NCBI GenBank assembly: GCA_949286115.1
Contig: CASEBK010000047.1
Coordinates: forward strand, 1 to 64,000
Source: an uncultured Veillonellaceae bacterium
GTDB taxonomy: Bacteria > Bacillota > Negativicutes > Veillonellales > Dialisteraceae
Direction of reading: 5' to 3'
DNA: 64,000 nucleotides
In this document: one piece after another, positions 985 through 44,326 of the stretch
Numbering within the stretch: position 1 is the first letter of the stretch
Layout: each line of letters starts with the position of its first letter
Translations under genes and position numbers: made by a program
The notes under the pieces: generated by a model
Database searches by the model: none
Told to the model about the DNA's origin: nothing
What the model saw: the letters and a program-made list of their open reading frames with translations, nothing else

Positions 985-1013
985 AAAAAAGAGGATGGTC
1001 TCCATCCCCCTTT
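985..1013 (-). terminator. Rho-independent terminator of autotransporter 1
   Basis: On the minus strand GGGATGG-AGA-CCATCC is followed by TCTTTTTT, ten bases after the autotransporter stop codon. The same terminator is present at 37114-37144. Confidence 0.85.
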
Positions 1014-1022
1014 TAATGTGTC

Positions 1023-4000
1023 TCAGAAGGCTTTGCTGAGCCCGATGTTCACCTGATAGGTGTCTTCGTTGTCGTTCCCGAAGCTGTGCTCGAGGTCGAG
1101 GAAGACGTAGCTGTCATCGTTCATGCGGTGCGAGAAGCCAAAGCCCACGTCGTACCATGTGCCTTCGTTCTCATATGTCTCGGAGAGCACGCCTGTCGTG
1201 TCCCGCGCCCGGATGTCCTGATCGCCCAGGAATTCGTGCAGGATGTCCGCCTTGAAGTACACGGTGTCCCCCGCGCTCGTGTCCCGTCCGATGCGGAAGC
1301 CCGCCCGGCCGATGAGGCTGTCGATGGCGTCCAGGTCCACTTTCGTCCCCTGACTCGTCGTGTAGGACGCGTCTGTCACGTAGGCGTACTGGAGCTGCGC
1401 CTGGGGCTCGAAGTACCAGTCGTTCCCCAGGTCCTTCTTCCGTCCGTATTCGGCGCTCACGCTCCACACGTCGTTGTCATAGTCGCCGCTGATCTTCTCG
1501 CCGAGTTCGCTGTAGATGTCGAAATCATTGGACAGGCGGCCGTACTTCACCACGTAGTCCGTGTAGTGTCCCGCATCGCCCAGCCAGGTGTCGTGGTACC
1601 ACAGGCCGGCCCGGCGCACGTCTCCGTCGCCCGCCACATTCTGATAGTCCGCGGTGCCCCGCATATAGTCGAAGGCAAAGCCCCGGTAGTGGGTCCCGTC
1701 TTTCTGGCCCTCATCTTTCCAGTCGTAGCCGATCTCGAACATGGTGTTCATGCTGCGGAAGGCGTCGTCTTTCCCGATGCGGTCATGACGCATCCGCACC
1801 CACAGTCCGTCGTCTCCGGTGAGGTACCGTGCCTCACCCATGCGCTTGTTGAGCCGGTCCATGTAGACCGCGTTGGAATAGTTCACTTTTGACATAGCGA
1901 TGACGGTCTTGCCTGCATTGGAGGTCTGCTCATCCGCACGGCCTACCAGTTTGAAATTCGTGGTGCCACTGAGGCCCGTCGAATCTTCCGCGTCTGTCTC
2001 GTCACCGGCTTTGTCTGCGGCATTCTCGGCGGTGAGCGCCAGCGTCTGCACCGCCTGCGTCGCAGCGACCGCCCCCGGTTCGCCGGTGCTCTCAAAGAAA
2101 TTGTCCACCATCGTATCTCCCGGCTTGGAGGCAGTGAGATTATCTCCATTATAGGCTACATTCTCCTTATTTCCAGCATAGTCGTCTGTGCCTACTTCAT
2201 ATTCCACGTTGAAGACGCCCTCACCGACGGTCACGGCCCGGAAACTCACATCAGAACCTTTGCCGACGGTGGCAAAGCGCAGTCCTTCGAAGCCATCTGC
2301 ATACATGTCGTCCATCGTCACGGCATCGACGACATTGATGATGTAATCACCTTTGGCGTGCTTCATGTACAACATGTCACTGTTACCACGCACTGCATCC
2401 AGTTTCATGTTAAAAGCAGCATCGCCCTTCATGTCATATACCGTCAGGGCATGCCCGCCGTTCAGTTCTTCCGTGCGCGCGTGAGTCAAGTCGATGGTCG
2501 CCATATGCCCAAGTGCTTCTACCGGATTTTCTGCATCAAAGACGCTGTTTGCCTTCGGAGCCGCTTCCGTATTGAGCCGGGTCACCCAGCTCTGGCCGGT
2601 AACGTCCCACCGAGAGCCCTCGCCCATGGTGAGATTCACTTCGCCTCCCTTGTAGATGGTACTGCTGAAAGCGGGATTGAAGAATTTGCTTCCCGCATGA
2701 CCTTCATCGATCGTCTCGCCTTCCGTATTGAGCCCCGCGTCGCCGTAGTCGTCTGCGCGGCCCGTAAGCACGCCGCCCCTGCCGAGGTCAAGGTTCAGAA
2801 TGCCGTTGTTCCCAGCGATGATATTGCCCGTTACATTGATTCCGCTCGTCCCGTCTGTTGCGTTAATATTCACTGTACCGGCATAAGCAGCGAGGATATC
2901 ACCGGTGATCTCACTTCCCGCACCGTATTTCAGTGTGACTTTCGCCCGATCTTCTACCGGTGCATTGACCATTTCGTCTGTCAGGTTAACTGCGGTTCCC
3001 GCTGCGATGGCGATGTCTGCACTGTTGGGGCTCTTATCATACTGATCTGTACTGATATACGTGCTGCCATTGATCTCTATATCCGCACCGTCATAAGCCC
3101 AGACCACACGTTCCAGCTGGTCTTCGTTTGTCGGGTCCGCTTTGGTCTGGAAAATATTCCAGTCCCCGGTGGAGGTGATCTTCGCGTCACCTTCCGCATA
3201 CAGGGCAGAAATGACAGATTTCCCCACAAAAGACGTTTCCTTATTGGGGTCTTTGTCATCCTGCAATCCGCCTGCATTATCAATGACCGCCGCAGAGTAG
3301 ACCGCATTCACCGCGCCCGCCATATCAACTTCTGTATTTTCATTTCGGGTATCGATCGCGCCAAGATAAGCATTCCAACCATTGTCCGCCTTGAAAGTCA
3401 CATCAGCGCCGGAGAGCGCTTTGACCGCAATACCGGAGCCAAAACCCTGCTCGTCTCTGGTACCGGCAGACGTCACATTGTTTCCATTCGTTGCGGTCAG
3501 AGAAATATCCGCCTCGCTGTAACCGTAAAGCGCCATGCCCTCACTTGCAATGATATTACTTCCATTTGCATCTAGATCAGCTGTACCCGCAGATGCCGCA
3601 ATACCATATGTCTTCCCAGATACCTGATTATCCTTACCGGCATCCATGTCAATCAAAGTGCCTTCACCGGAAGCAAATAAGGCATAATTATTGTCCGCAG
3701 TAACCGCATTACTCCCCACATCTGCCGTTAGAGTTGCGCTACCCGCAGATTGAACTAAAATCCCCCCATTCTTCGACTCAACTGTATTATTTCCTTTGGA
3801 AGAAGCCACTTCAACGATGCTATTTGCACCAGAAGCGCGAATACTATAAGCAGAACTTCCCGTAACAGAAATAAAATTTCCACTCGTCCCTTTTAAAGAG
3901 ATATTTGAGTTATCATCAAGTGAATATAATCCACTACTTGAGGCACCATCGGCCGTTACCCGATTGTAATCCCCAATAATTGTAGTTTTTCCCCCATAGG

Positions 4001-5651
4001 CAGATCTAATTCCAGCGAGTCCCCCAATAATATTTTTCCCTTTTTCTGCCAAAAGGCTAATTTGTGCCCCATAACTAGCATAAATCCCAAAGTTAGCTCC
4101 AGTCACGGTATTATTCCCACCATTTGCCATCAAGCCGATTGAGGATTTCCCATATTCCGCACGAAGGCCAATGCCCGTTCCCGTTGCGATGACAGTATTA
4201 TTCACACCGCTGATATTTGCTTTCATGCCCAGATCATAGGCACTGTTCAGCAAAGAGAACGAATTAACGTAAACGCCATCATTAGAAGTAGCACTTCCGC
4301 CGTTTGCGGCAATTGTGACATCCCCCTGATCGTCAATGAGGTTGACTTCGCTGTTAACCTGAGTAAGCATGACGCCGACACTGCTGCCATCCGATGTCGA
4401 AGTAATCGTAATTCCATTTTTGCCTGTCGCATGCAGGGTAACGTCAGCCTTACTGTCATTATCACGGTAATAATCCCCAACGCCATTATCCACCTGAAGG
4501 CCGACGGCCCCCGGATACAGGCCATTCTCTTTAACAGAGCTTTTTATCTTAATATCAGCCCCTTCAATATTTACGGTCGCATCCTTAAATGACGTTTCCA
4601 ATTCAGGACCACCGCTTTTGGTATTTCCCGTCGCAACAAAAAGGCCGATCGAATTATTAAAAGATGTTGTAGCTTCATTCTTCGCATCAATATTCACTGA
4701 ACCCGATGCGGTGATTTCAACCGTGCTTTGCGTATTCCTGATACCGTATACATCTGCGCCCCCAGTTGCTGTAGAAGTCGCTTGATGCTTCGCCGTAGCC
4801 GTAAAATCACCGGTTGTAACATTCACTGTCCCCTCATTTTCCGCCCATACTCCATATACATCAGAACTATGTCCTGTCACGTCAATCGTCGTTGTAGCGC
4901 CATCCGTCTTATCGATGACATATTCCGCGCCATCGGTCACATGGATGCCATTTGTGCCAATCGGAGATTTCACATCGCTGTCATCAACGATGATCTCGTT
5001 TTTCTGTCCTCTTAAGGTAACCGCACTGCCTTTCCCGGATACAGTCGCCCCGCTTGTCCCGGCAAGGATTTGATTGATTCCTTTATCGGACTGTAAAGAA
5101 ACTGCATTCCCACCACTTACAGTGAGGCCATCCTGCCCTGCGGTAATTTTGTTCCCTACTTCACCATTGGCGACCAGTGTGATATTGCTTCCTTTACCAC
5201 TTCCAGATACGGCAATCCCATCCTTTGCCGCTGTAATCTCATTTTCCGCACCAGTCAAAATCATTTCAGTATTACCATTGTTACTGCTAATGCCATCATT
5301 CGCATCGGAGGTGACCATATTTTTTCCAGTTGTTGCATCCAGCTTCAATGTATAGTCGTTGTCATCTGCGGGTCTTCCGTTGATCTGTATGGCAACATTA
5401 TCATCAGAAGAGATCGTATTCCCCTGAGAAGTAATTACCAGACTGCCCTCCTGACTTGTTGTTTGTTTAATAGCCGTATCGTCCCCGCCCGAGATGGTAA
5501 TCGTCTCGCCCGGTTTATTATATTCATCTCCATAATCCTTATCGATCTCTATCGTCTCTGCCATGCCCGTGGTCCATACTGTGGCGGACAGGGCGAGGCC
5601 TATGAGGACGGCGCGGCGGAGCGCGGTCTTTTTATGGTCGTTTGTGTTCAT
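1023..5651 (-). CDS. Type Va autotransporter, very large passenger
   Basis: The product is a 1542-residue surface or secreted protein. A Sec signal peptide covers residues 1-31 (twin Arg, hydrophobic core, cleavage at GMA-E). A long beta-helix-like passenger rich in Asn/Gly/Thr/Val repeats of the kind 'GNNTVTA' follows to about residue 1230, then a C-terminal autotransporter barrel of about 290 residues ending in the outer-membrane signature ...GLSKAF. The start has AGGAGG nine bases upstream, and this site lies inside the end of the preceding zinc-ribbon gene, with which it overlaps by 20 bases. Passenger function is unknown; adhesin is the usual role of this class. The barrel is nearly identical to the one at 37152-38081, while the passengers differ. 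Expression is probably tied to the leader/zinc-ribbon genes upstream. Confidence 0.92.
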   Translation of the reverse strand: MNTNDHKKTALRRAVLIGLALSATVWTTGMAETIEIDKDYGDEYNKPGETITISGGDDTAIKQTTSQEGSLVITSQGNTISSDDNVAIQINGRPADDNDYTLKLDATTGKNMVTSDANDGISSNNGNTEMILTGAENEITAAKDGIAVSGSGKGSNITLVANGEVGNKITAGQDGLTVSGGNAVSLQSDKGINQILAGTSGATVSGKGSAVTLRGQKNEIIVDDSDVKSPIGTNGIHVTDGAEYVIDKTDGATTTIDVTGHSSDVYGVWAENEGTVNVTTGDFTATAKHQATSTATGGADVYGIRNTQSTVEITASGSVNIDAKNEATTSFNNSIGLFVATGNTKSGGPELETSFKDATVNIEGADIKIKSSVKENGLYPGAVGLQVDNGVGDYYRDNDSKADVTLHATGKNGITITSTSDGSSVGVMLTQVNSEVNLIDDQGDVTIAANGGSATSNDGVYVNSFSLLNSAYDLGMKANISGVNNTVIATGTGIGLRAEYGKSSIGLMANGGNNTVTGANFGIYASYGAQISLLAEKGKNIIGGLAGIRSAYGGKTTIIGDYNRVTADGASSSGLYSLDDNSNISLKGTSGNFISVTGSSAYSIRASGANSIVEVASSKGNNTVESKNGGILVQSAGSATLTADVGSNAVTADNNYALFASGEGTLIDMDAGKDNQVSGKTYGIAASAGTADLDANGSNIIASEGMALYGYSEADISLTATNGNNVTSAGTRDEQGFGSGIAVKALSGADVTFKADNGWNAYLGAIDTRNENTEVDMAGAVNAVYSAAVIDNAGGLQDDKDPNKETSFVGKSVISALYAEGDAKITSTGDWNIFQTKADPTNEDQLERVVWAYDGADIEINGSTYISTDQYDKSPNSADIAIAAGTAVNLTDEMVNAPVEDRAKVTLKYGAGSEITGDILAAYAGTVNINATDGTSGINVTGNIIAGNNGILNLDLGRGGVLTGRADDYGDAGLNTEGETIDEGHAGSKFFNPAFSSTIYKGGEVNLTMGEGSRWDVTGQSWVTRLNTEAAPKANSVFDAENPVEALGHMATIDLTHARTEELNGGHALTVYDMKGDAAFNMKLDAVRGNSDMLYMKHAKGDYIINVVDAVTMDDMYADGFEGLRFATVGKGSDVSFRAVTVGEGVFNVEYEVGTDDYAGNKENVAYNGDNLTASKPGDTMVDNFFESTGEPGAVAATQAVQTLALTAENAADKAGDETDAEDSTGLSGTTNFKLVGRADEQTSNAGKTVIAMSKVNYSNAVYMDRLNKRMGEARYLTGDDGLWVRMRHDRIGKDDAFRSMNTMFEIGYDWKDEGQKDGTHYRGFAFDYMRGTADYQNVAGDGDVRRAGLWYHDTWLGDAGHYTDYVVKYGRLSNDFDIYSELGEKISGDYDNDVWSVSAEYGRKKDLGNDWYFEPQAQLQYAYVTDASYTTSQGTKVDLDAIDSLIGRAGFRIGRDTSAGDTVYFKADILHEFLGDQDIRARDTTGVLSETYENEGTWYDVGFGFSHRMNDDSYVFLDLEHSFGNDNEDTYQVNIGLSKAF

Positions 5652-5994
5652 CTTGGTTCCTCCTGTATAAATTCCATACCGTTTTGAGTGAATGCATTTC
5701 CGGCGTCTCCTGCGGGGGCGGGGCCGATGCGCGGCGGTGCTTCCAGTAGAGGCGCTCGCAGTGTGAGGAGCAGAATTTCTGCCGCCTGTCGGACGGGTCC
5801 GTCACGGAGACGAGCGCGCCACAGCGGAGGCACCGGAAGCTTCGGATGACGGGCGCGCCGTCTGGGACGGCTTCCGCCTCCCGCGGGCGCTTCCGGTAGT
5901 CGTACTTCCGGCAGGCCGTAGAGCAGTAGCGCTGGGTCCTGCGCCCGGCGGTGAAATGCTTCCCGCACACCGGGCAGATCGCTTCCCGCTTCAT
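5632..5994 (-). CDS. Small double zinc-ribbon protein, copy 1
   Basis: This is a 120-residue basic protein with two FCS-like treble-clef or ribbon motifs. The first is CPVCGKHF...YCSTACRKYDY (residues 7-31) and the second CLRCGALV...FCSSHCERLYW (about 54-84). I do not recognise a named family. A nucleic-acid- or protein-binding role is inference. The ATG at 5994 is chosen because the other copy (43700-44059) has a stop codon just upstream in this frame, so the GTG at 6021 cannot be conserved. No Shine-Dalgarno precedes the ATG, but it overlaps as ATGA with the stop the leader ORF would reach when in frame, which suggests translational coupling. The 3' end supplies the ribosome-binding site of the autotransporter. 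The two copies are about 60-65 % identical. Confidence 0.8.
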   Translation of the reverse strand: MKREAICPVCGKHFTAGRRTQRYCSTACRKYDYRKRPREAEAVPDGAPVIRSFRCLRCGALVSVTDPSDRRQKFCSSHCERLYWKHRRASAPPPQETPEMHSLKTVWNLYRRNQDEHKRP

Positions 5995-6022: not shown

Positions 6023-6053
6023 AAAAGGGCAGCCCAAAAGAGGCTGTCCTTCT
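6023..6053 (-). promoter_or_regulatory. Terminator-like hairpin inside the leader ORF, copy 1
   Basis: In transcript sense AAGGACAGCC, a UCUUUUG loop and GGCUGCCCUU form a 10-bp stem with one A/C mismatch, followed by UUC. The sequence from the hairpin to about 50 bases upstream is identical in both module copies, though the flanks differ. A terminator or attenuator lying under translating leader ribosomes is inference. Confidence 0.5.
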
Positions 6054-6115: not shown

Positions 6116-6199
6116 TTACATCAATATCCCACCCCCCCCAACCATAGAGATGTTCATCGACATGCATGCGGCGTTTGCGATGGGTCTCTGAATGCTCAC
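6116..6199 (-). CDS. Leader ORF with poly-G tract, OFF frame
   Basis: A GTG start at 6199 follows a perfect GGAGGTGA (6204-6211) at ideal spacing, so initiation here is well supported. The peptide opens MSIQRPIANAACMSMNISM, crosses a G8 tract and stops at TAA after 27 codons. If the tract had 6 or 9 Gs the frame would stay open for 69 codons (with 9 Gs), match the second copy from TTTPSVQFHTVC onward, and stop exactly at the ATGA overlap with the zinc-ribbon gene. The present length is therefore read as the OFF state of a slippage switch. Its start is closely similar to MSIQKCIASAAGM in the other copy. No function of the peptide itself is recognised; it may act only through translation. Confidence 0.7.
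   Translation of the reverse strand: MSIQRPIANAACMSMNISMVGGGGILM
6132..6139 (-). repeat. Homopolymeric G8 tract (slippage tract)
   Basis: Eight consecutive G on the minus strand lie within the leader ORF. The equivalent tract in the second copy has seven. Frames: 6 or 9 Gs keep the long leader open, 7 gives a stop after VGGVGY, and 8 gives a stop after GGGGILM. Confidence 0.85.
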
Positions 6200-37151: not shown

Positions 37152-40100
37152 TCAGAAGGCTTTGCTAAGCCCGATGTTCACCTGATACGTGTCTTCGTTG
37201 TCGTTCCCGAAGCTGTGCTCGAGGTCGAGGAAGACGTAGCTGTCATCGTTCATCCGGTGCGAGAAGCCGAAGCCCACGTCGTACCATGTGCCTTCGTTCT
37301 CGTACGTCTCAGAGAGCGTGCCTGTCGTGTCCCGGGCGCGGATGTCCTGATCGCCCAGGAATTCGTGAAGGATGTCCGCCTTGAAGTACACGGTGTTCCC
37401 CGCGCTGGTGTCCCGTCCGATGCGGAAGCCTGCACGCCCGATGAGGCTGTCGATGGCGTCCAGGTCCACTTTCGTCCCCTGGCTCGTGGTGTAGGAGGCG
37501 TCCGTCACGTAGGCGTACTGGAGCTGCGCCTGGGGCTCGAAGTACCAGTCGCTCCCCATGTCTTTCTTTCGGCCGTATTCGGCGCTCACGCTCCACACGT
37601 CGTTGTCGTAGTCGCCGCTGATCTTCTCGCCGAGTTCGCTGTAGATGTCGAAGTCGTTGGAGAGGCGGCCGTACTTCACCACGTAGTCCGTGTAGTGGCC
37701 AGCATCGCCCATCCACGTGTCGTGGTACCACAGGCCGCCGCGGCGCACGTCGCCGTCGCCTGCCACGTTCTGGTAGTCGGCGGTGCCCCGCATGTAGTCA
37801 AAGGCAAAGCCCCGGTAGTGGGTCCCGTCTTTCTGGGCGTTATCTTTCCAGTCGTAACCGATCTCGAACATGGTGTTCATACTGCGGAAGGCGTCGTCTT
37901 TCCCGATGCGGTCATGACGGAGGCGCACCCAGAGGCCGTCGTCTCCGGTAAGGTACCGCGCCTCGCCCATGCGCTTATTGAGCCGGTCCATGTACACGGC
38001 ATTGGAATAGTTCACCTTCGACATAGCGATGACGGTCTTGCCCGCGTCGGAGGTCTGGTCCTGTCCGCTATCTTTCATCAAGTACCAGTTCCTGCTGTTG
38101 CTCTCGTTGTAATTTTCTTCAACGATGGTATTCCCCGGCTTCGCTTTGTCAAACGCAGTGCCGTTGTAACTTTCATTTTCCTTCTGCTTCTCCGCATCTT
38201 CATAGTTGACTTCTTCGCCTGTCGATGACGAAGGCCATATCGTTCACGCCGCGGTCGCGCATATAGGTCACGGCGGTGCCGGTGCCGCTCTCGAATTTCA
38301 GCACTGTTTCATCGGCGTTCACCGTAGCGAAGCGTAGCTTTTCTCCGTCCGCCATATTCTCCCAGCCGGCGATTTCATCGAACTGCACGCGCTCTATGAG
38401 CTGTCTGCCTGCCGTATCGGCATCGGCGATATAGAGCATGTCGCTCGCGCCGTGGTCGTCTCTGTCCAGACTCATCACGAAGGTATGCTCTCCGGACAGC
38501 GTGCCGATATGCACCGCGTCCGCAAAATCATAGCCCTCCGCCGCCAACACGACGGCGCCGCCGTTGCCGGAGAGCGTCGTGGTCCAGCTCTGCCCGGTCA
38601 AAAACCACTGCGATCCTTCGCCCATGGTCAGATCGACCGTACCTTGGCTCGTAAACTTCCCGCCGGCCGCAGCCTGCCCGCTGGTCCCGCTTTCCTCAGT
38701 GGAAGAATTTTCCTCTACGAAGGACGAGTCGTAGACATTGAGCTTTCGTTTTTCATCCGCATGGGCATAGTCGTCCACGCGCCCGAAGAGGGTACCGCTG
38801 CCGAGGTCCACGGAAGCGCGGCCCACGGTCACGTCCTCGCCGCTATCGTCCGTCTTCGTGCCGCCGTTCCCGGCCAGAATATCTCCGGTGATCCGAAGCT
38901 GGCCCTGATAGTCATCCTGTGAAATGGCCACCGTGCCGCCCCGCGCCGCGACGATATCCCCGGTGATCGCGCTGTCTTTATCTCCAGTGAGAGACAGATG
39001 GACCTGCCCATAGATCCTCTTGCCCAGCTCTTCATCTTTCTCCTCGCTTTGTCCCCCCGCGGCGAGCGCCACATGGGACGTATCCGCCAGAAGAGACGCG
39101 CCGGCGAGACCGCTGGAGAAGGCATTGATCTGTACAGCGCCCTCGATATCGACCGACCCGCCGCGGCCAGAGGCCAACACGGACAGGCCGTTGCTCTTCA
39201 CGGTGACGATATCCTGCTTTGCCGACAAGTTCGCGTAGGCGCGGTAGTCCACCGGGTCTCCCTTGCTCGGCTGGCGCTCATCGATACCCGCGTAGACGGC
39301 GGCTCCTGTATCGCCTGCAAGATAGATGCCCTCTTCCTCCGCAGTCAGCGTGACCGTGCTGTTCATCCGGGCGTAGACCGCCGACTTGCCTGCTTCGATG
39401 GTGATCCCCGCTTTTTCTCCGTCTGCCATGACCGCGCCATTTCCGTTTGCCGTGAGGGTCACTTCCGCCCGTTCGCCTTGATTCACCACAAGGCTTCCCT
39501 GGGCCATCACGCCGTGCTCCTTTGCATTCACGGTCATGCGCCCGTCATCTCCGCTGGCTGCGTCGGACGTGACATTGATCGTTCCGATATAGGCTTGCAG
39601 CCCGTTCTTTCCCGCGTCCAGATCAAGATGTCCCGTGGAGATATTCGCTTCCCACAGACCGTCCTCGCCAGTCGCCACCATGTCTTCGCCGGAAGCGATG
39701 GCCGTGCCTTTCTCCGTATTTACAGTAAGGCGCTTCACGTACGTATTCAGCACACCCTTATCGTCACCGTCATCATTGGTGCTGCCGACGAGGATACCGT
39801 ACGCCCCTTCGTCCGTGGTCACGGTGACCTCGCCGGACCGTTCCTCTTCGGAGCCGATGTACAGCGTCGTGCCGTCTTTCACCGTGATGGCTGCGCCCTG
39901 CGTATCGCTTTTCGCGCTCATATTCCCAGTGACCGTGATGGTCTGCCCGGACCAGTTGATATCGCCATTCCCATGGAAGTCCACGTTACCATTGATCTCC
40001 AACCGGTTTTCCGCGTCGAGATTCATCGTATACTTATAGTCCTCACTGCCGGAGTTCGTTCGAATGGCGTAGAGATAGTCGTTGTCCGATGTAACCTCGA

Positions 40101-40876
40101 TGGTGATATTCTTCGCGCTGAAGGAAGTGTCGCTGTTTTGTCCCACGGTCATCACACTGCTTTTCCCGCCGCTCGCCCTGGCGTTGTCGTAGTTGCCGGT
40201 CAGCGTGATGGTATCTGCATGGATCTCCGTTTTTCCATAGCCCTTAAAAGCCTGCCCCTGTCCCCTTGCGCCATTTGAGAGTGTGACTTCTTTTGCATAG
40301 ATCAATCCTGTCCGGTCATTTCCCACGGATTGGCCCACAGAAAATAGGCCTCCATTCACCTGAAACGACTCCATCCACGCGTTCTCATCGCCCGCCTGAA
40401 ACGTACCGTGTGCCACTGTGACACCGGAGACAGTGTTGCTCACCCCCGCAAAGTCACCAAAACCGCCGCCATTATAGACAAAACGTTCCCCCTTGAGCAG
40501 AAGCATACTGCTGCCTTTTTCGTTTTGAAAGCCAATGATAGCACCTTTTCCGGTACCGCCATTGATTGTGATCGTTTTCCCGGTCATCGTGACATTTCTG
40601 GCATACGTTCCTCCGCCGATTGCAATGCTCTGCGGCACGGTCTGCAACGCATAACCATAATCGATCGAATCGGACCCGATCGTGATCGTTTGGGTATTGT
40701 CATCGCCAATAGTAATAGTCGTTGGGTCATTATGATCCACTTCCATCTTGTCAAAAGAAATATCCGCTCCAGTGACGGAAGATTGGCCATTGTAGTCAGC
40801 CGCCAGCGACAGATATCCCCCCCCCATGGAGGAGGGTAAAGGCGGCCCATGCGGCCAGTATTTTCTTATGTTTCAT
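37152..40876 (-). pseudogene. Autotransporter B: signal peptide, passenger and barrel in three frames
   Basis: One autotransporter gene broken by two frame changes. ATG at 40876 (AAAGGAGA upstream) opens a signal peptide MKHKKILAAWAAFTLLH, then runs into a G9 tract and stops at 40796. With 8 Gs it would continue GGGYLSLAADYNGQ into the 870-residue passenger (frame open from 40827 to 38200), giving a normal cleavage site. Near 38215-38225 the passenger frame shifts into that of the barrel: the barrel frame reads back as TGEEVNYEDAEKQKENESY before joining the 38081-37152 barrel. The barrel is about 97 % identical to that of the 1023-5651 gene; the passenger is different. The G9 looks like an OFF phase; the second break has no repeat and may be decay or a sequence error. 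Confidence 0.8.
40817..40825 (-). repeat. Homopolymeric G9 tract in signal peptide of autotransporter B
   Basis: Nine Gs on the minus strand at codons 18-20 of the signal peptide. Length 8 (or 5, 11) joins signal peptide and passenger; 9 gives a stop seven codons later. Confidence 0.85.
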
Positions 40877-40953: not shown

Positions 40954-43710
40954 TCAGAAGTTCCAGCGGATGCCGGCGTTCCACGACCAATTGGTGCGGA
41001 AGTCGCCTCCGGCGGAGCGTTCATAGTCGAAATAGATATGGGTGTCGTCATCCACGCGAATGGCCGCGCCGAGGCCATACTCCACCCAGGTGTCGCCGAA
41101 GTCGCCTTCCCGGCGGAGGCGGTTCCCTTCGGCGTCGCTCATGTGGTAGTCGTAGTCGCCGAGGAATTCGTGGAGCACGTTCAGCTTCACATAGACGTTC
41201 GTCTTCTCATTGATGTCCCGGCCGAGGTGGAAGCCCGCCCGTCCCACGAGGCTCAGCATATCGTCCTGCTCGACGCGGACGCCGTTGGAGAGAGTGTATT
41301 CGTCGCCCCAGAGGTAGCCGAAGGTGAGCTGGGTCTGCGGCTCGATGTACCAGCCGTCATCCCCCCATGGCTTCTTCCGGCCATACTCGGCGCTCACCTG
41401 CACGCCCCAGTTACGGCTGTCTCCGTCGATGCGGCGGCCTTCGCTGTCCCGGACGCGGAAATCATTGTCCAGACGGGAGCCTTTCAGGACGAGGTCGAGA
41501 TAGTGTCCTTTGCTCCGCATGTCCGTGCGGTAGAGGCTCAGGTCGTAGCTCTCGTTGTCCCCGCTGCCGTGGCGGTAGGAGCTCTCCCCGTCGCCGTAGG
41601 AGAAGGCGAAGCCTTCATAGCGGACGTGGCGGGCGTCCTTCTCGGCGAGCCGGTCATAGCCGAGCTGGTAGAGGGTATACTTGTCTTTGAATTTCATCCC
41701 GTCTCCGTCGTAGCTCATCTCCGTGCCTTTCATGCGGAACCAGAGGCCTTTCTCTTCGTCCCCATTGTGTCGGAGGTCGCCCATGCGGCGCATGAGCTTA
41801 TCGCTGTCCCGCCACATGAAATAATTGAGGCTCCCTGCGGAGAGGGCGGTCTCCACGGAAGTGGTGGGCTTCTCGCCGGGGTCCACCTCTTCCGCCGCGG
41901 CAAGGTACCAGTCGGTGGTGTAGCCGCTTGTCTCGCTCTCTTTGCGGTCCAGCGCATAGCGGTGCCAGTAGAGCGTGCCTTCGCTGTCCGGTACGCGGAA
42001 CTCGCCCCGCTCGTCTTTGACGCTCACCAGCACGGTCCCAGCCGCGCCGTCCAGTTGATCTTCGTCCTGCGCCGCGAGTTCGATGTAGTCCGTGCCGGTG
42101 TGGGTGCCCTTCACGTAGAGGCGGTCGCTGTTATTCACGTTCGTGGAGGCGTCGATATCCATGATGACTGTACCGCCCCCGCCGGTAAGATCATTGTCCA
42201 CGTAGATATTCTGGAAGGAACCGTTCTCCGAGGTCGTATGCTTCGTGTAGACCTTATCAGTCATGTCCAGCACGCCGCCGCTTGTGAGGGTGAGATTCGT
42301 CACGTGGCTGTCATTCTCATTCGCGCCCTGTACGTTCTTCCACACCGCGCCGTTCGTGACGGTGAGGTCAAACGTACCAGCATAAGCATCGTTGCCGTCA
42401 TTGACGAGGGCGTTCCCGTACAGATACGAATCGGCGTTGCTCAGTGTGAGGTCGATGTATCCTTCGTGATAAGCATAGACCTGTCCCAGGAGCTGCACCG
42501 TGCCCTTGCCGTCTTCATTGACCTTGATCGTTCCCGCATCACTGCGGGAGGCAGATCCGTTGAACGTATTCGCCGTGGCCAGTGCCCTAATCTTTGTGGG
42601 GTCCTTGACGCCGTCATACGTCGACACGCCCACATAAAGGGAACTGACCTCGATGGTCCCGCCGGTCTCCGTAAGAAGGCCGACGCGCCCGAAAGCATTG
42701 GTGCTCTCATCATTCAGAAAATCGATATACACCGTATCCGCTTTGGAGTATGCCTTGTATGCCGAATGGATGCCTGCCGCTTTGCCCTTCGTATCCAGTT
42801 GGAAGCGCGTCGTCCCCTCGAGGTTGATACCACTCTGGCCCTGCGACGAAGTGTATACCATGTCGTAGAAGCCGCTGCTCGCGCCGTAGATCTTTCCCCC
42901 ATTCTTCGAAGTGACGGTCACATCGACGAGACTGTCAGCGCTGGAATGAATCGTCCCGCCATCGCTCGTATACAGCCCGGCAATCTCATGATTGGCTTCG
43001 CCGTTGCTTTGCTCTGCGATGACATTGATCTCACTCTGCCTACCATTTAGAACGACAAGTCCATCCGTCGCCACTGCGCCAAACGTCTTGCTCTGACCAG
43101 TAAAGTTGTCGCCATACTCTGACAAGGTGCGCGCAGTCACATTCAAATTACCATTGACGACGATTGTCCCGCCGCCTGCACTGTTATTGTGGAAATCATT
43201 TCCCGCCGCGAGGCCATAGGCTGTTCCCTTACCGGTCACATCGATCTCCGCTACATTCAGGGTGATCTTCCCGCCCTTGTCTTCGGGCTGTTCTCCTCCC
43301 GGAAATGGGTTATATCCTCCCTCTTTCCACACGCCCATCACCTTATCGCCGGTATCGGCAGAGGCGCTGTTATCGATCTTGACGGTCAATTTTCCGCCGA
43401 CAGTAAGATACGTCCCCTGATTCTTTCCTTCAGCCACTTGTATACCATAAGCATTGGTACTGTTTTTGGTGAGCGTGATCGTACCGCCATTCGTGATCGT
43501 GTAGTTGCCGCCGCCAGAAAGCACCAGACCTTCCTGCTTGTCGTCTTCCTTATTTTCGTCAGTATAATCTACGACGCGATGAATACTGTCATAGGTACCG
43601 GGCGCAGGACCCGCGGTAGTGATCACCTCCGCGTGAGCGACGCCGCCGGTGAGGGCCAGGGCAGCGAACAGCGCGGCCGTAACATGATTTTTCCGTATTT
43701 TATGCTCCAT
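40954..43710 (-). CDS. Type Va autotransporter A of module 2
   Basis: The product is 918 residues. The signal peptide covers residues 1-27 (basic start, hydrophobic core, cleavage at AHA-E). The passenger to about 620 has beta-helix repeats (GGNYTITNGGTITLT). The C-terminal barrel of about 290 residues ends ...AGIRWNF. The barrel is clearly related to, but well diverged from, the two near-identical barrels in this window; shared anchors are VSAEYGRKK, GRAGFHLGRDI and VLHEFLGD. The start overlaps the zinc-ribbon gene by 11 bases and its AGAGGAG site lies in that gene. Autotransporter B follows after 77 bases, probably on the same transcript. Surface role; ligand unknown. Confidence 0.92.
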   Translation of the reverse strand: MEHKIRKNHVTAALFAALALTGGVAHAEVITTAGPAPGTYDSIHRVVDYTDENKEDDKQEGLVLSGGGNYTITNGGTITLTKNSTNAYGIQVAEGKNQGTYLTVGGKLTVKIDNSASADTGDKVMGVWKEGGYNPFPGGEQPEDKGGKITLNVAEIDVTGKGTAYGLAAGNDFHNNSAGGGTIVVNGNLNVTARTLSEYGDNFTGQSKTFGAVATDGLVVLNGRQSEINVIAEQSNGEANHEIAGLYTSDGGTIHSSADSLVDVTVTSKNGGKIYGASSGFYDMVYTSSQGQSGINLEGTTRFQLDTKGKAAGIHSAYKAYSKADTVYIDFLNDESTNAFGRVGLLTETGGTIEVSSLYVGVSTYDGVKDPTKIRALATANTFNGSASRSDAGTIKVNEDGKGTVQLLGQVYAYHEGYIDLTLSNADSYLYGNALVNDGNDAYAGTFDLTVTNGAVWKNVQGANENDSHVTNLTLTSGGVLDMTDKVYTKHTTSENGSFQNIYVDNDLTGGGGTVIMDIDASTNVNNSDRLYVKGTHTGTDYIELAAQDEDQLDGAAGTVLVSVKDERGEFRVPDSEGTLYWHRYALDRKESETSGYTTDWYLAAAEEVDPGEKPTTSVETALSAGSLNYFMWRDSDKLMRRMGDLRHNGDEEKGLWFRMKGTEMSYDGDGMKFKDKYTLYQLGYDRLAEKDARHVRYEGFAFSYGDGESSYRHGSGDNESYDLSLYRTDMRSKGHYLDLVLKGSRLDNDFRVRDSEGRRIDGDSRNWGVQVSAEYGRKKPWGDDGWYIEPQTQLTFGYLWGDEYTLSNGVRVEQDDMLSLVGRAGFHLGRDINEKTNVYVKLNVLHEFLGDYDYHMSDAEGNRLRREGDFGDTWVEYGLGAAIRVDDDTHIYFDYERSAGGDFRTNWSWNAGIRWNF

Positions 43711-44059
43711 GAAAGATCTCTCCTCTGTATAAATCCAATATCGTCTTTTGCTTTTTCTGCACCGGCGCCGGCGGGTCCGCCTGCGCGGACTGTCTGCGGC
43801 GGTGCTTCCAGTAGAGGCGCTCGCAGTGAGACGAGCAGAACCGCCGGCGCCGGTCGCAGATATCCGTCACGGAAACGACAGCGCCGCAGCGCTCGCAGGT
43901 GAAGCGGCGAAGGACGGCCGCATTCTCCGGCACGTCTTCCGCCTTCCGGGGATGCTTCCGGTAGTCGTACTTCCGACATGCGTCGGAGCAGTAGCGATGA
44001 TTCTTTCGCCTCGCGGTGAAGTGCTTCCCGCACACGGGGCAGATCGCTTCCCGCTTCAT
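43700..44059 (-). CDS. Small double zinc-ribbon protein, copy 2
   Basis: The product is 119 residues. MKREAICPVCGKHF and YCSDACRKYDYRK form the first four-Cys motif; CERCGAVV and FCSSHCERLYWKHRR form the second. The C-terminus is variable. An in-frame TAA lies upstream, so translation must start at this ATG, yet there is no Shine-Dalgarno. The ATG overlaps the TGA of the leader ORF (ATGA), which is open in this copy. Family unknown; perhaps an RNA- or DNA-binding regulator of the adjoining autotransporter, which is inference. Confidence 0.82.
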   Translation of the reverse strand: MKREAICPVCGKHFTARRKNHRYCSDACRKYDYRKHPRKAEDVPENAAVLRRFTCERCGAVVSVTDICDRRRRFCSSHCERLYWKHRRRQSAQADPPAPVQKKQKTILDLYRGEIFHGA

Positions 44060-44262
44060 GGGCCGCCCGGAGCCTTACAGGCACACGAAAAGGGCAGCCC
44101 AAAAGAGGCTGTCCTTCTTCTATGGAGTAAGCCTGCGCCGCGGACGCAGACGGTATGAAACTGTACAGACGGAGTCGTTGTTATATCATTATTCCACCCC
44201 CCCGCCATGAAGATATTCAATGCCATGCCTGCGGCGCTTGCGATGCATTTCTGAATGCTCAC
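44056..44262 (-). CDS. Leader ORF with poly-G tract, ON frame
   Basis: GTG start at 44262 follows GGAGGTGA (44267-44274). The 68-residue frame begins MSIQKCIASAAGMALNIFM, crosses the G7 tract as AGGWNND, continues TTTPSVQFHTVC, passes the conserved hairpin as TASFGLPFSCA and stops at the ATGA overlap with the zinc-ribbon ATG. Adding one or two Gs would stop it within a few codons of the tract. This is read as the ON state. The encoded product has no recognisable domain and may act mainly by carrying ribosomes to the next start codon and across the hairpin. Confidence 0.7.
   Translation of the reverse strand: MSIQKCIASAAGMALNIFMAGGWNNDITTTPSVQFHTVCVRGAGLLHRRRTASFGLPFSCACKAPGGP
44088..44119 (-). 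promoter_or_regulatory. Terminator-like hairpin inside the leader ORF, copy 2
   Basis: The same 10-bp stem and UUUU as at 6023-6053; every base of the hairpin is conserved. Confidence 0.5.
44197..44203 (-). repeat. Homopolymeric G7 tract (slippage tract)
   Basis: Seven Gs on the minus strand in the module 2 leader ORF. Lengths 4, 7 or 10 keep the leader open; 8 or 9 close it. Confidence 0.8.
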
Positions 44263-44297
44263 GGTGTCACCTCCTCTCTGAATAGTTAGACGGCTTT

Positions 44298-44326
44298 ATT
44301 GTACCGGCTTTTCTCGCAGGATGCAA
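44298..44326 (-). promoter_or_regulatory. Sigma-A-type promoter of surface module 2
   Basis: TTGCAT, 17 bases, TACAAT, with the same spacing to the GTG start as at 6235-6263. Confidence 0.6.

What the first reader, a model, noticed from the sequence alone, without database searches (positions are those of the whole stretch)
43700..44326. Poly-G leader ORF that may switch a zinc-ribbon gene and an autotransporter by translational coupling (copy 2, ON length)
Seen directly: a promoter, a perfect GGAGGTGA, a GTG-started 68-codon ORF crossing G7, and its TGA overlapping the ATG of a zinc-ribbon gene that lacks any Shine-Dalgarno. That gene overlaps the autotransporter start by 11 bases. One extra or missing G truncates the leader. 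Known: poly-G tracts slip during replication and drive phase variation of surface proteins in other bacteria. Inferred: here the switch lies not in the adhesin but two genes upstream, acting through ribosome delivery and perhaps attenuation. I know of no described system with this layout.
Basis: partly seen in the sequence, partly recalled or inferred. Interest (0 to 1): 0.93.

Follow-up and report, generated by a model that had tools for sequence, protein, structure and literature searches.

The report
Slipping poly-G leader switches autotransporter genes
In five genomes of the bacterial class Negativicutes, a run of G letters sits in a tiny leader gene that overlaps a predicted transcription stop signal ahead of predicted surface-protein genes, and gaining or losing a G would likely switch those genes on or off at random, as is known for the pili of one Streptococcus.

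Summary
In detail: on the minus strand a GTG-started 68-codon leader (44262-44056) crosses G7, its TGA overlaps the ATG of a zinc-ribbon gene without a good Shine-Dalgarno, and an autotransporter follows. I found the layout at 13 loci in five genomes of three families: two in the window, one elsewhere in this genome, ten in relatives. Tracts are G7 to G11. Four loci are in the long frame as seen, eight stop well before the hairpin, one stops in its loop. At the 11 loci with a zinc-ribbon gene, the long frame ends at or just after its start (+1 to +23; +4 in seven). Best reading: a phase-variable attenuator, in which ribosomes in the long frame would keep the terminator open, with hand-over to the zinc-ribbon start as a likely second gate. 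The kind is known: Streptococcus gallolyticus pil1 has GCAGA repeats in a leader-peptide gene before a terminator. This is a new variant in an unrelated lineage, with a homopolymer, a start-codon hand-over and several copies per genome. No read-level length data and no expression data were available.

The parts
44298..44326 (-). copy 2 promoter-like TTGCAT-N17-TACAAT
   Evidence: sequence; not listed by the stricter scan; also in copy 1 at 6263-6235
44267..44274 (-). copy 2 leader Shine-Dalgarno GGAGGTGA
   Evidence: sequence; duplex energy -13.3 kcal/mol
44056..44262 (-). copy 2 leader ORF, 68 codons, in the long frame as seen; TGA overlaps the zinc-ribbon ATG
44197..44203 (-). copy 2 poly-G tract, G7
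44088..44116 (-). intrinsic-terminator-like hairpin and TTTT inside the copy 2 leader
43700..44059 (-). zinc-ribbon gene (two CxxC..CxxxC units), weak Shine-Dalgarno
40954..43710 (-). autotransporter gene with beta-domain
   Evidence: Pfam PF03797 E 7.6e-38
6116..6199 (-). copy 1 leader as seen: short frame, 27 codons, stops 66 nt before the hairpin
6132..6139 (-). copy 1 poly-G tract, G8
6023..6051 (-). copy 1 terminator-like hairpin and TTTT
5632..5994 (-). copy 1 zinc-ribbon gene
1023..5651 (-). copy 1 autotransporter gene, 1542 aa

Best explanation
This is most likely a phase-variable transcription attenuator: a poly-G run lies inside a strongly initiated leader ORF whose long reading frame runs over a terminator-like hairpin in front of a zinc-ribbon gene and an autotransporter gene, and slippage of the run would decide whether ribosomes reach that hairpin. 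Shown: leader, tract, hairpin and genes are present, and the layout recurs at 13 loci. Shown: at the 11 zinc-ribbon loci, 20 of the 22 other frames stop 50-124 nt before the hairpin. Inferred: in the long frame, translating ribosomes keep the hairpin from forming and RNA polymerase runs on into the operon; in the short frames the hairpin forms and most transcripts would end. Inferred second step: the long frame ends on or near the zinc-ribbon start, so ribosomes are handed to a gene that lacks a good Shine-Dalgarno. Inferred: replication slippage changes the tract length, and independent switching of several copies would give mixed surface coats. As seen, copies 2 and 3 are in the predicted ON state and copy 1 in the predicted OFF state.
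For: Same layout at 13 loci in five genomes of three families, two orders. Stop of the long frame at +4 in 7 of 11, otherwise +1, +10, +10, +23; nominal shuffle product 4e-9 over eight lineages, with a window chosen after seeing the data. Long frames survive behind tracts that are not in that frame at 9 of 13 loci (8 short, 1 ending in the loop). Hairpin with T-run of 4-7 in 13 of 13, each beating at least 98% of its shuffles; three pairs changed on both sides in seven alignable hairpins. Leader Shine-Dalgarno -11.6 to -13.3 kcal/mol at 11 of 12 loci measured. None of 22 zinc-ribbon paralogs without such a leader has G7 or longer within 400 nt upstream. Downstream genes are type V secretion genes at 12 of 13: ten by Pfam, two by eye. 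The mechanism is shown with mutants in S. gallolyticus (PMC3894217).
Against: No reads, no RNA data, no expression data. An open frame is not rare per locus (1004-3441 of 5000 shuffles). Little sign of coding constraint: codon-position differences 5/3/4, 19/18/17, 3/6/3. The pattern scan lists the hairpin at 3 of 6 leaders tried, no more often than in shuffles. Exceptions: one further frame of copy 3 also stays open, G001 ends at +23 and one of its frames stops in the loop. Copy 3 has a weaker leader Shine-Dalgarno (-6.4). Tract lengths differ between copies, but no locus was seen in two strains.
Confidence: 0.7

Rival explanations
1. Pure translational coupling: the hairpin does not terminate, and the tract only decides whether ribosomes are delivered to the zinc-ribbon start and from there to the autotransporter.
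For: Stop and start overlap (+4) at 7 of 11 loci. Weak zinc-ribbon Shine-Dalgarno, -3.1 to -8.6 kcal/mol at 10 loci. One paralog (L120) has a leader without tract or terminator that still ends as GTGA on the zinc-ribbon start.
Against: A hairpin with a T-run is kept at 13 of 13 loci. Two loci lack the zinc-ribbon gene but keep leader, tract and hairpin. The autotransporter has a fair Shine-Dalgarno at 6 of 8 measured loci.
Confidence: 0.12
2. The tract acts through RNA structure or a small RNA, not through the reading frame, as the variable G-repeat of Helicobacter pylori tlpB does with the small RNA RepG.
For: In 2 of 6 leaders the tract pairs locally better than shuffles (copy 3, G001). A second class of tracts in this genus lies in 5' UTRs, where pairing is predicted. 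RepG and tlpB: abstract start seen in a listing only (PMC8295292).
Against: 4 of 6 leaders show no special pairing. Frame and stop position are kept. No Rfam family in the window at gathering score.
Confidence: 0.07
3. Not a switch: the tract is stable in the cell, and the leader is an ordinary attenuator or a decaying small gene.
For: No reads; lengths are consensus calls, four of the five genomes being in many contigs. Single open frames are not rare.
Against: The tract is at the same place in 13 of 13 loci, with G8 or longer in 10 of 13. Long frames are kept in eight short-frame copies. By my reading, 18 of the 43 G8-or-longer runs in three genomes of the genus lie at 5' ends of surface-protein genes.
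Confidence: 0.1

Closest known systems
Streptococcus gallolyticus pil1 and pil3 leader-peptide phase variation (Danne et al. 2014, PMC3894217; abstract, 12 passages, Discussion read)
   Same: A simple repeat inside a leader-peptide gene with its own ribosome site, then a premature intrinsic terminator, then a surface-protein operon; short leaders stop well before the terminator, longer ones reach or pass it.
   Different: Homopolymer G instead of GCAGA; autotransporters instead of sortase pili; the long frame here ends on or near the start of the next gene; that gene is a zinc-ribbon protein at 11 of 13 loci; up to five loci per genome; other lineage. Tested with mutants there, not here.
Translation-coupled attenuators such as E. 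coli pyrBI (recalled, no call)
   Same: A leader ORF runs over the terminator and ribosomes on it prevent termination.
   Different: There the cell's nucleotide level decides; here the reading frame after a slipping tract would decide.
Slipped-strand contingency genes such as Neisseria opa or Campylobacter poly-G genes (recalled, no call)
   Same: A repeat of variable length sets the reading frame and so ON or OFF.
   Different: There the repeat lies in the switched gene itself; here it lies in a separate leader ORF upstream.
Helicobacter pylori tlpB mRNA leader with RepG (PMC8295292, abstract start in a listing only)
   Same: A variable G-repeat in an mRNA leader.
   Different: Control by a small RNA that targets the G-repeat; no leader ORF or terminator is mentioned in what I saw.

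Membership tests
pil1-type phase-variable leader-peptide attenuator | simple repeat inside a leader ORF with its own ribosome-binding site | tested here: met
   G7 to G11 inside the leader at 13 of 13 loci; Shine-Dalgarno energy -11.6 to -13.3 at 11 of 12 measured, -6.4 at copy 3
pil1-type phase-variable leader-peptide attenuator | intrinsic terminator between leader start and first structural gene | tested here: met
   hairpin plus T-run of 4-7 at 13 of 13; pattern scan lists it at 3 of 6; termination itself not measured
pil1-type phase-variable leader-peptide attenuator | short frames stop well before the terminator (28 nt or more in the paper), another frame reaches or passes it | tested here: met
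   20 of 22 other frames stop 50-124 nt before the hairpin at the 11 zinc-ribbon loci; exceptions copy 3 and G001; L086 59 and 79 nt
pil1-type phase-variable leader-peptide attenuator | repeat number varies within a strain and expression follows the frame | not testable with these tools
   no reads or expression data; lengths differ between copies only (G7 to G11)
pil1-type phase-variable leader-peptide attenuator | GCAGA repeats before sortase pilus genes (the pil1/pil3 loci themselves) | tested here: not met
   poly-G before type V secretion genes: works like pil1, is not a pil1 locus
classical in-gene slipped-strand contingency locus | repeat inside the coding sequence of the switched protein | tested here: not met
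   the tract lies in a separate upstream ORF
trp-type ribosome-stalling attenuator | leader peptide with a run of codons for the regulating amino acid | tested here: not met
   no such run beside the glycines of the tract in the leaders read (by eye)
RepG-type poly-G mRNA leader | small RNA that pairs with the G-repeat | not tested
   no small RNA sought; no Rfam family at gathering score in the window
YacG or DUF2116 zinc finger (the middle gene) | profile score above the curated cut-off | tested here: inconclusive

The most novel reading that the evidence does not exclude
A class-wide family of two-gate phase switches in Negativicutes: one slipping G run in a leader ORF controls both transcription (ribosomes open a terminator) and translation (the same ribosomes are handed onto the start of a dedicated zinc-finger gene, a partner or regulator of the adhesin). 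Several independently switching copies per genome would give combinatorial surface coats.
Probability: 0.4. Interest if true: 0.76.

Novelty: new variant of a known kind. Interest (0 to 1): 0.64.

Why it matters
In my searches, phase-variable attenuation by a leader ORF turned up only for streptococcal pili. The same logic, with another repeat and other surface proteins, at many loci of an unrelated lineage suggests that the design arose more than once, and it would make the state of each copy readable from sequence alone. The leaders form a natural set for testing how far a ribosome must travel to keep a terminator open, and they point to a zinc-finger family tied to autotransporters.
Full report
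WHAT IS THERE. The finding lies on the minus strand. A promoter-like TTGCAT-N17-TACAAT (44326-44298), GGAGGTGA (44274-44267) and a GTG-started ORF of 68 codons (44262-44056) that crosses G7 (44203-44197) come first. The leader's TGA overlaps the ATG of a zinc-ribbon gene (43700-44059), which overlaps an autotransporter gene (40954-43710, Pfam beta-domain E 7.6e-38) by 11 bases. Inside the 3' half of the leader is a hairpin followed by TTTT (44116-44088). The leader start is strong (-13.3 kcal/mol with the anti-SD), the zinc-ribbon start weak (-5.6), the autotransporter start intermediate (-9.1).

HOW COMMON. The window's genome (1.86 Mb, 49 contigs; the window is part of contig C47) holds three copies: copy 1 in the window (G8), copy 2 (the finding, G7) and copy 3 on contig C4 (G7). 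A zinc-ribbon search of the family (12 genomes) found three more loci with the same layout, two in G002 (G9, G7) and one in G001 (G8). A search of the order (61 genomes) found four in G025, a single-contig genome of another family (G9, G11, G11, G11); other zinc-ribbon proteins of G025 look close to named Megasphaera proteins (by eye). A search of the class (380 genomes) added G198, in a third family and another order (L151, G9). Two further leaders with tract and hairpin but no zinc-ribbon gene turned up: L086 in G002 (G8) and L132 in G025 (G11). Total 13 loci in five genomes. Relatives come as one genome per species, so no locus could be compared between strains. That these orders belong to the class Negativicutes is recalled.

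FRAMES. After the tract, one frame runs on over the hairpin. At the 11 zinc-ribbon loci its stop ends at +4, +4, +4 (copies 1-3), +10, +10 (G002), +23 (G001), +4, +4, +4, +1 (G025) and +4 (L151), counted from the first base of the zinc-ribbon start. Of the 22 other frames at these loci, 20 stop 50-124 nt before the hairpin; one frame of copy 3 stays open, and one of G001 stops in the hairpin loop. At L086 the two short frames stop 59 and 79 nt before it. As seen, copy 2, copy 3, G002b and L151 are in the long frame (4 of 13); G001 is in the frame that stops in the loop; copy 1, G002a, L113, L115, L118, L122, L086 and L132 (8 of 13) are in short frames. That long frames survive behind tracts that do not use them, at all five leaders found in G025, is the best sequence argument for reversible switching.

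CHANCE. Each piece alone is weak: some frame is open to the zinc-ribbon ATG in 1004-3441 of 5000 dinucleotide shuffles at the six loci of this genus. Requiring a stop within -2 to +25 of the start gives 0.04-0.29 per locus at ten loci, and a nominal product of 4e-9 over eight lineages. That window was set after seeing the data and paralogs are not fully independent, so the number is a guide only. Codon positions give little support for a conserved peptide: differences were 5/3/4, 19/18/17 and 3/6/3 in three pairs, and 132/132/162 in four Megasphaera-type leaders, with a clear third-position excess only in a six-codon core (18/9/30). The frame rather than the peptide seems to be kept.

TERMINATOR. 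A hairpin with a T-run of 4-7 is present at 13 of 13 loci; each beats at least 98% of shuffles of its own letters. In seven alignable hairpins three pairs change on both sides, and the covariation score 0.210 is reached by 2 of 500 shuffles; the outermost two of the 12 pairs that I wrote are mostly unpaired. The pattern tool listed this hairpin only at copies 1, 2 and G001 of the six leaders tried, and found no excess over shuffles near copy 2.

CONTROLS. None of 22 zinc-ribbon paralogs without such a leader has G7 or longer within 400 nt upstream. Four of these, in G025, lie just behind an ORF of about 500 or more codons ending YQFN[VF]GMNWKV, which looks like an autotransporter barrel end. 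One (L120) has a leader with neither tract nor hairpin seen, which ends as GTGA on the zinc-ribbon start. Downstream of the 13 leaders, ten genes have type V secretion domains by Pfam, two show the ESPR-like signal by eye (L118, L122), and one contig ends (L151, whose zinc-ribbon frame also looks broken).

MECHANISM. The pieces fit translation-mediated antitermination. In the long frame ribosomes would cross the hairpin region and RNA polymerase would read on; in the short frames they leave 50 nt or more before it. This is the mechanism supported by mutants for Streptococcus gallolyticus pil1, where isolates whose leader stops at least 28 nt before the terminator showed the mostly low profile, and those reaching it a high share of strongly expressing cells (PMC3894217; abstract, 12 passages and the whole Discussion read). 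The hand-over to the zinc-ribbon start looks like a second gate, but it is not universal, as two loci lack that gene. Not shown: slippage, termination, read-through, coupling, and any role of the zinc-ribbon protein, whose model resembles treble-clef fingers only weakly.

VERDICT. The main lever is probably attenuation rather than coupling, and the kind of system is known from streptococcal pili. It is a new variant: a homopolymer, another surface-protein class, a start-codon hand-over, up to five loci per genome, and a spread over two orders of the class.

Noticed in passing
window 40817-40825 and 38200-40876 (minus strand): The next gene in the operon starts MKHKKILAAWAAFTLLH and meets G9 in its signal peptide; as seen it stops after 26 codons, so it looks like a second, in-gene poly-G switch just behind copy 2. 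A further frame break near 38215-38243 separates the passenger from its barrel frame (38243-37155).
   Followed up: partly
L065, L068, L075 (window genome) and L088, L095 (G002): Another class: G8 to G11 in the 5' UTR of five surface-protein-like genes, followed by a hairpin of the form CCTCCCG..CGGGAGG (CCTCTC..GAGAGG in L095) that holds the gene's own Shine-Dalgarno and a T-run; the folds pair the G run with a pyrimidine stretch in 5 of 5, though only L068 is clearly beyond shuffles. Possibly an RNA-level phase switch.
   Followed up: partly
L087, L093 (G002): G8 between promoter-like hexamers ahead of two SLH-domain porin-like genes (by eye): looks like a promoter-spacer switch.
   Followed up: no
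L060, L067, L077, L083, L089, L096: G8 or G9 within or just behind the signal-peptide region of surface-protein-like genes (by eye). With the classes above and the leaders, 18 of 43 G8-or-longer runs in three genomes of the genus lie at 5' ends of surface-protein genes.
   Followed up: partly
L101, L106, L109, L121 (G025): Zinc-ribbon genes of the same family lie directly behind ORFs with an autotransporter-like end, so the family is tied to autotransporters on either side.
   Followed up: partly
L120 (G025): A 56-codon leader with no G run of 5 or more ends as GTGA on a zinc-ribbon start: perhaps a locked form of the switch.
   Followed up: partly
window, whole: G7 matches are fewer than expected (7 against 19.4 in shuffles), and three of the four G runs of 7 or more lie at 5' ends of genes in the two autotransporter operons.
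   Followed up: yes
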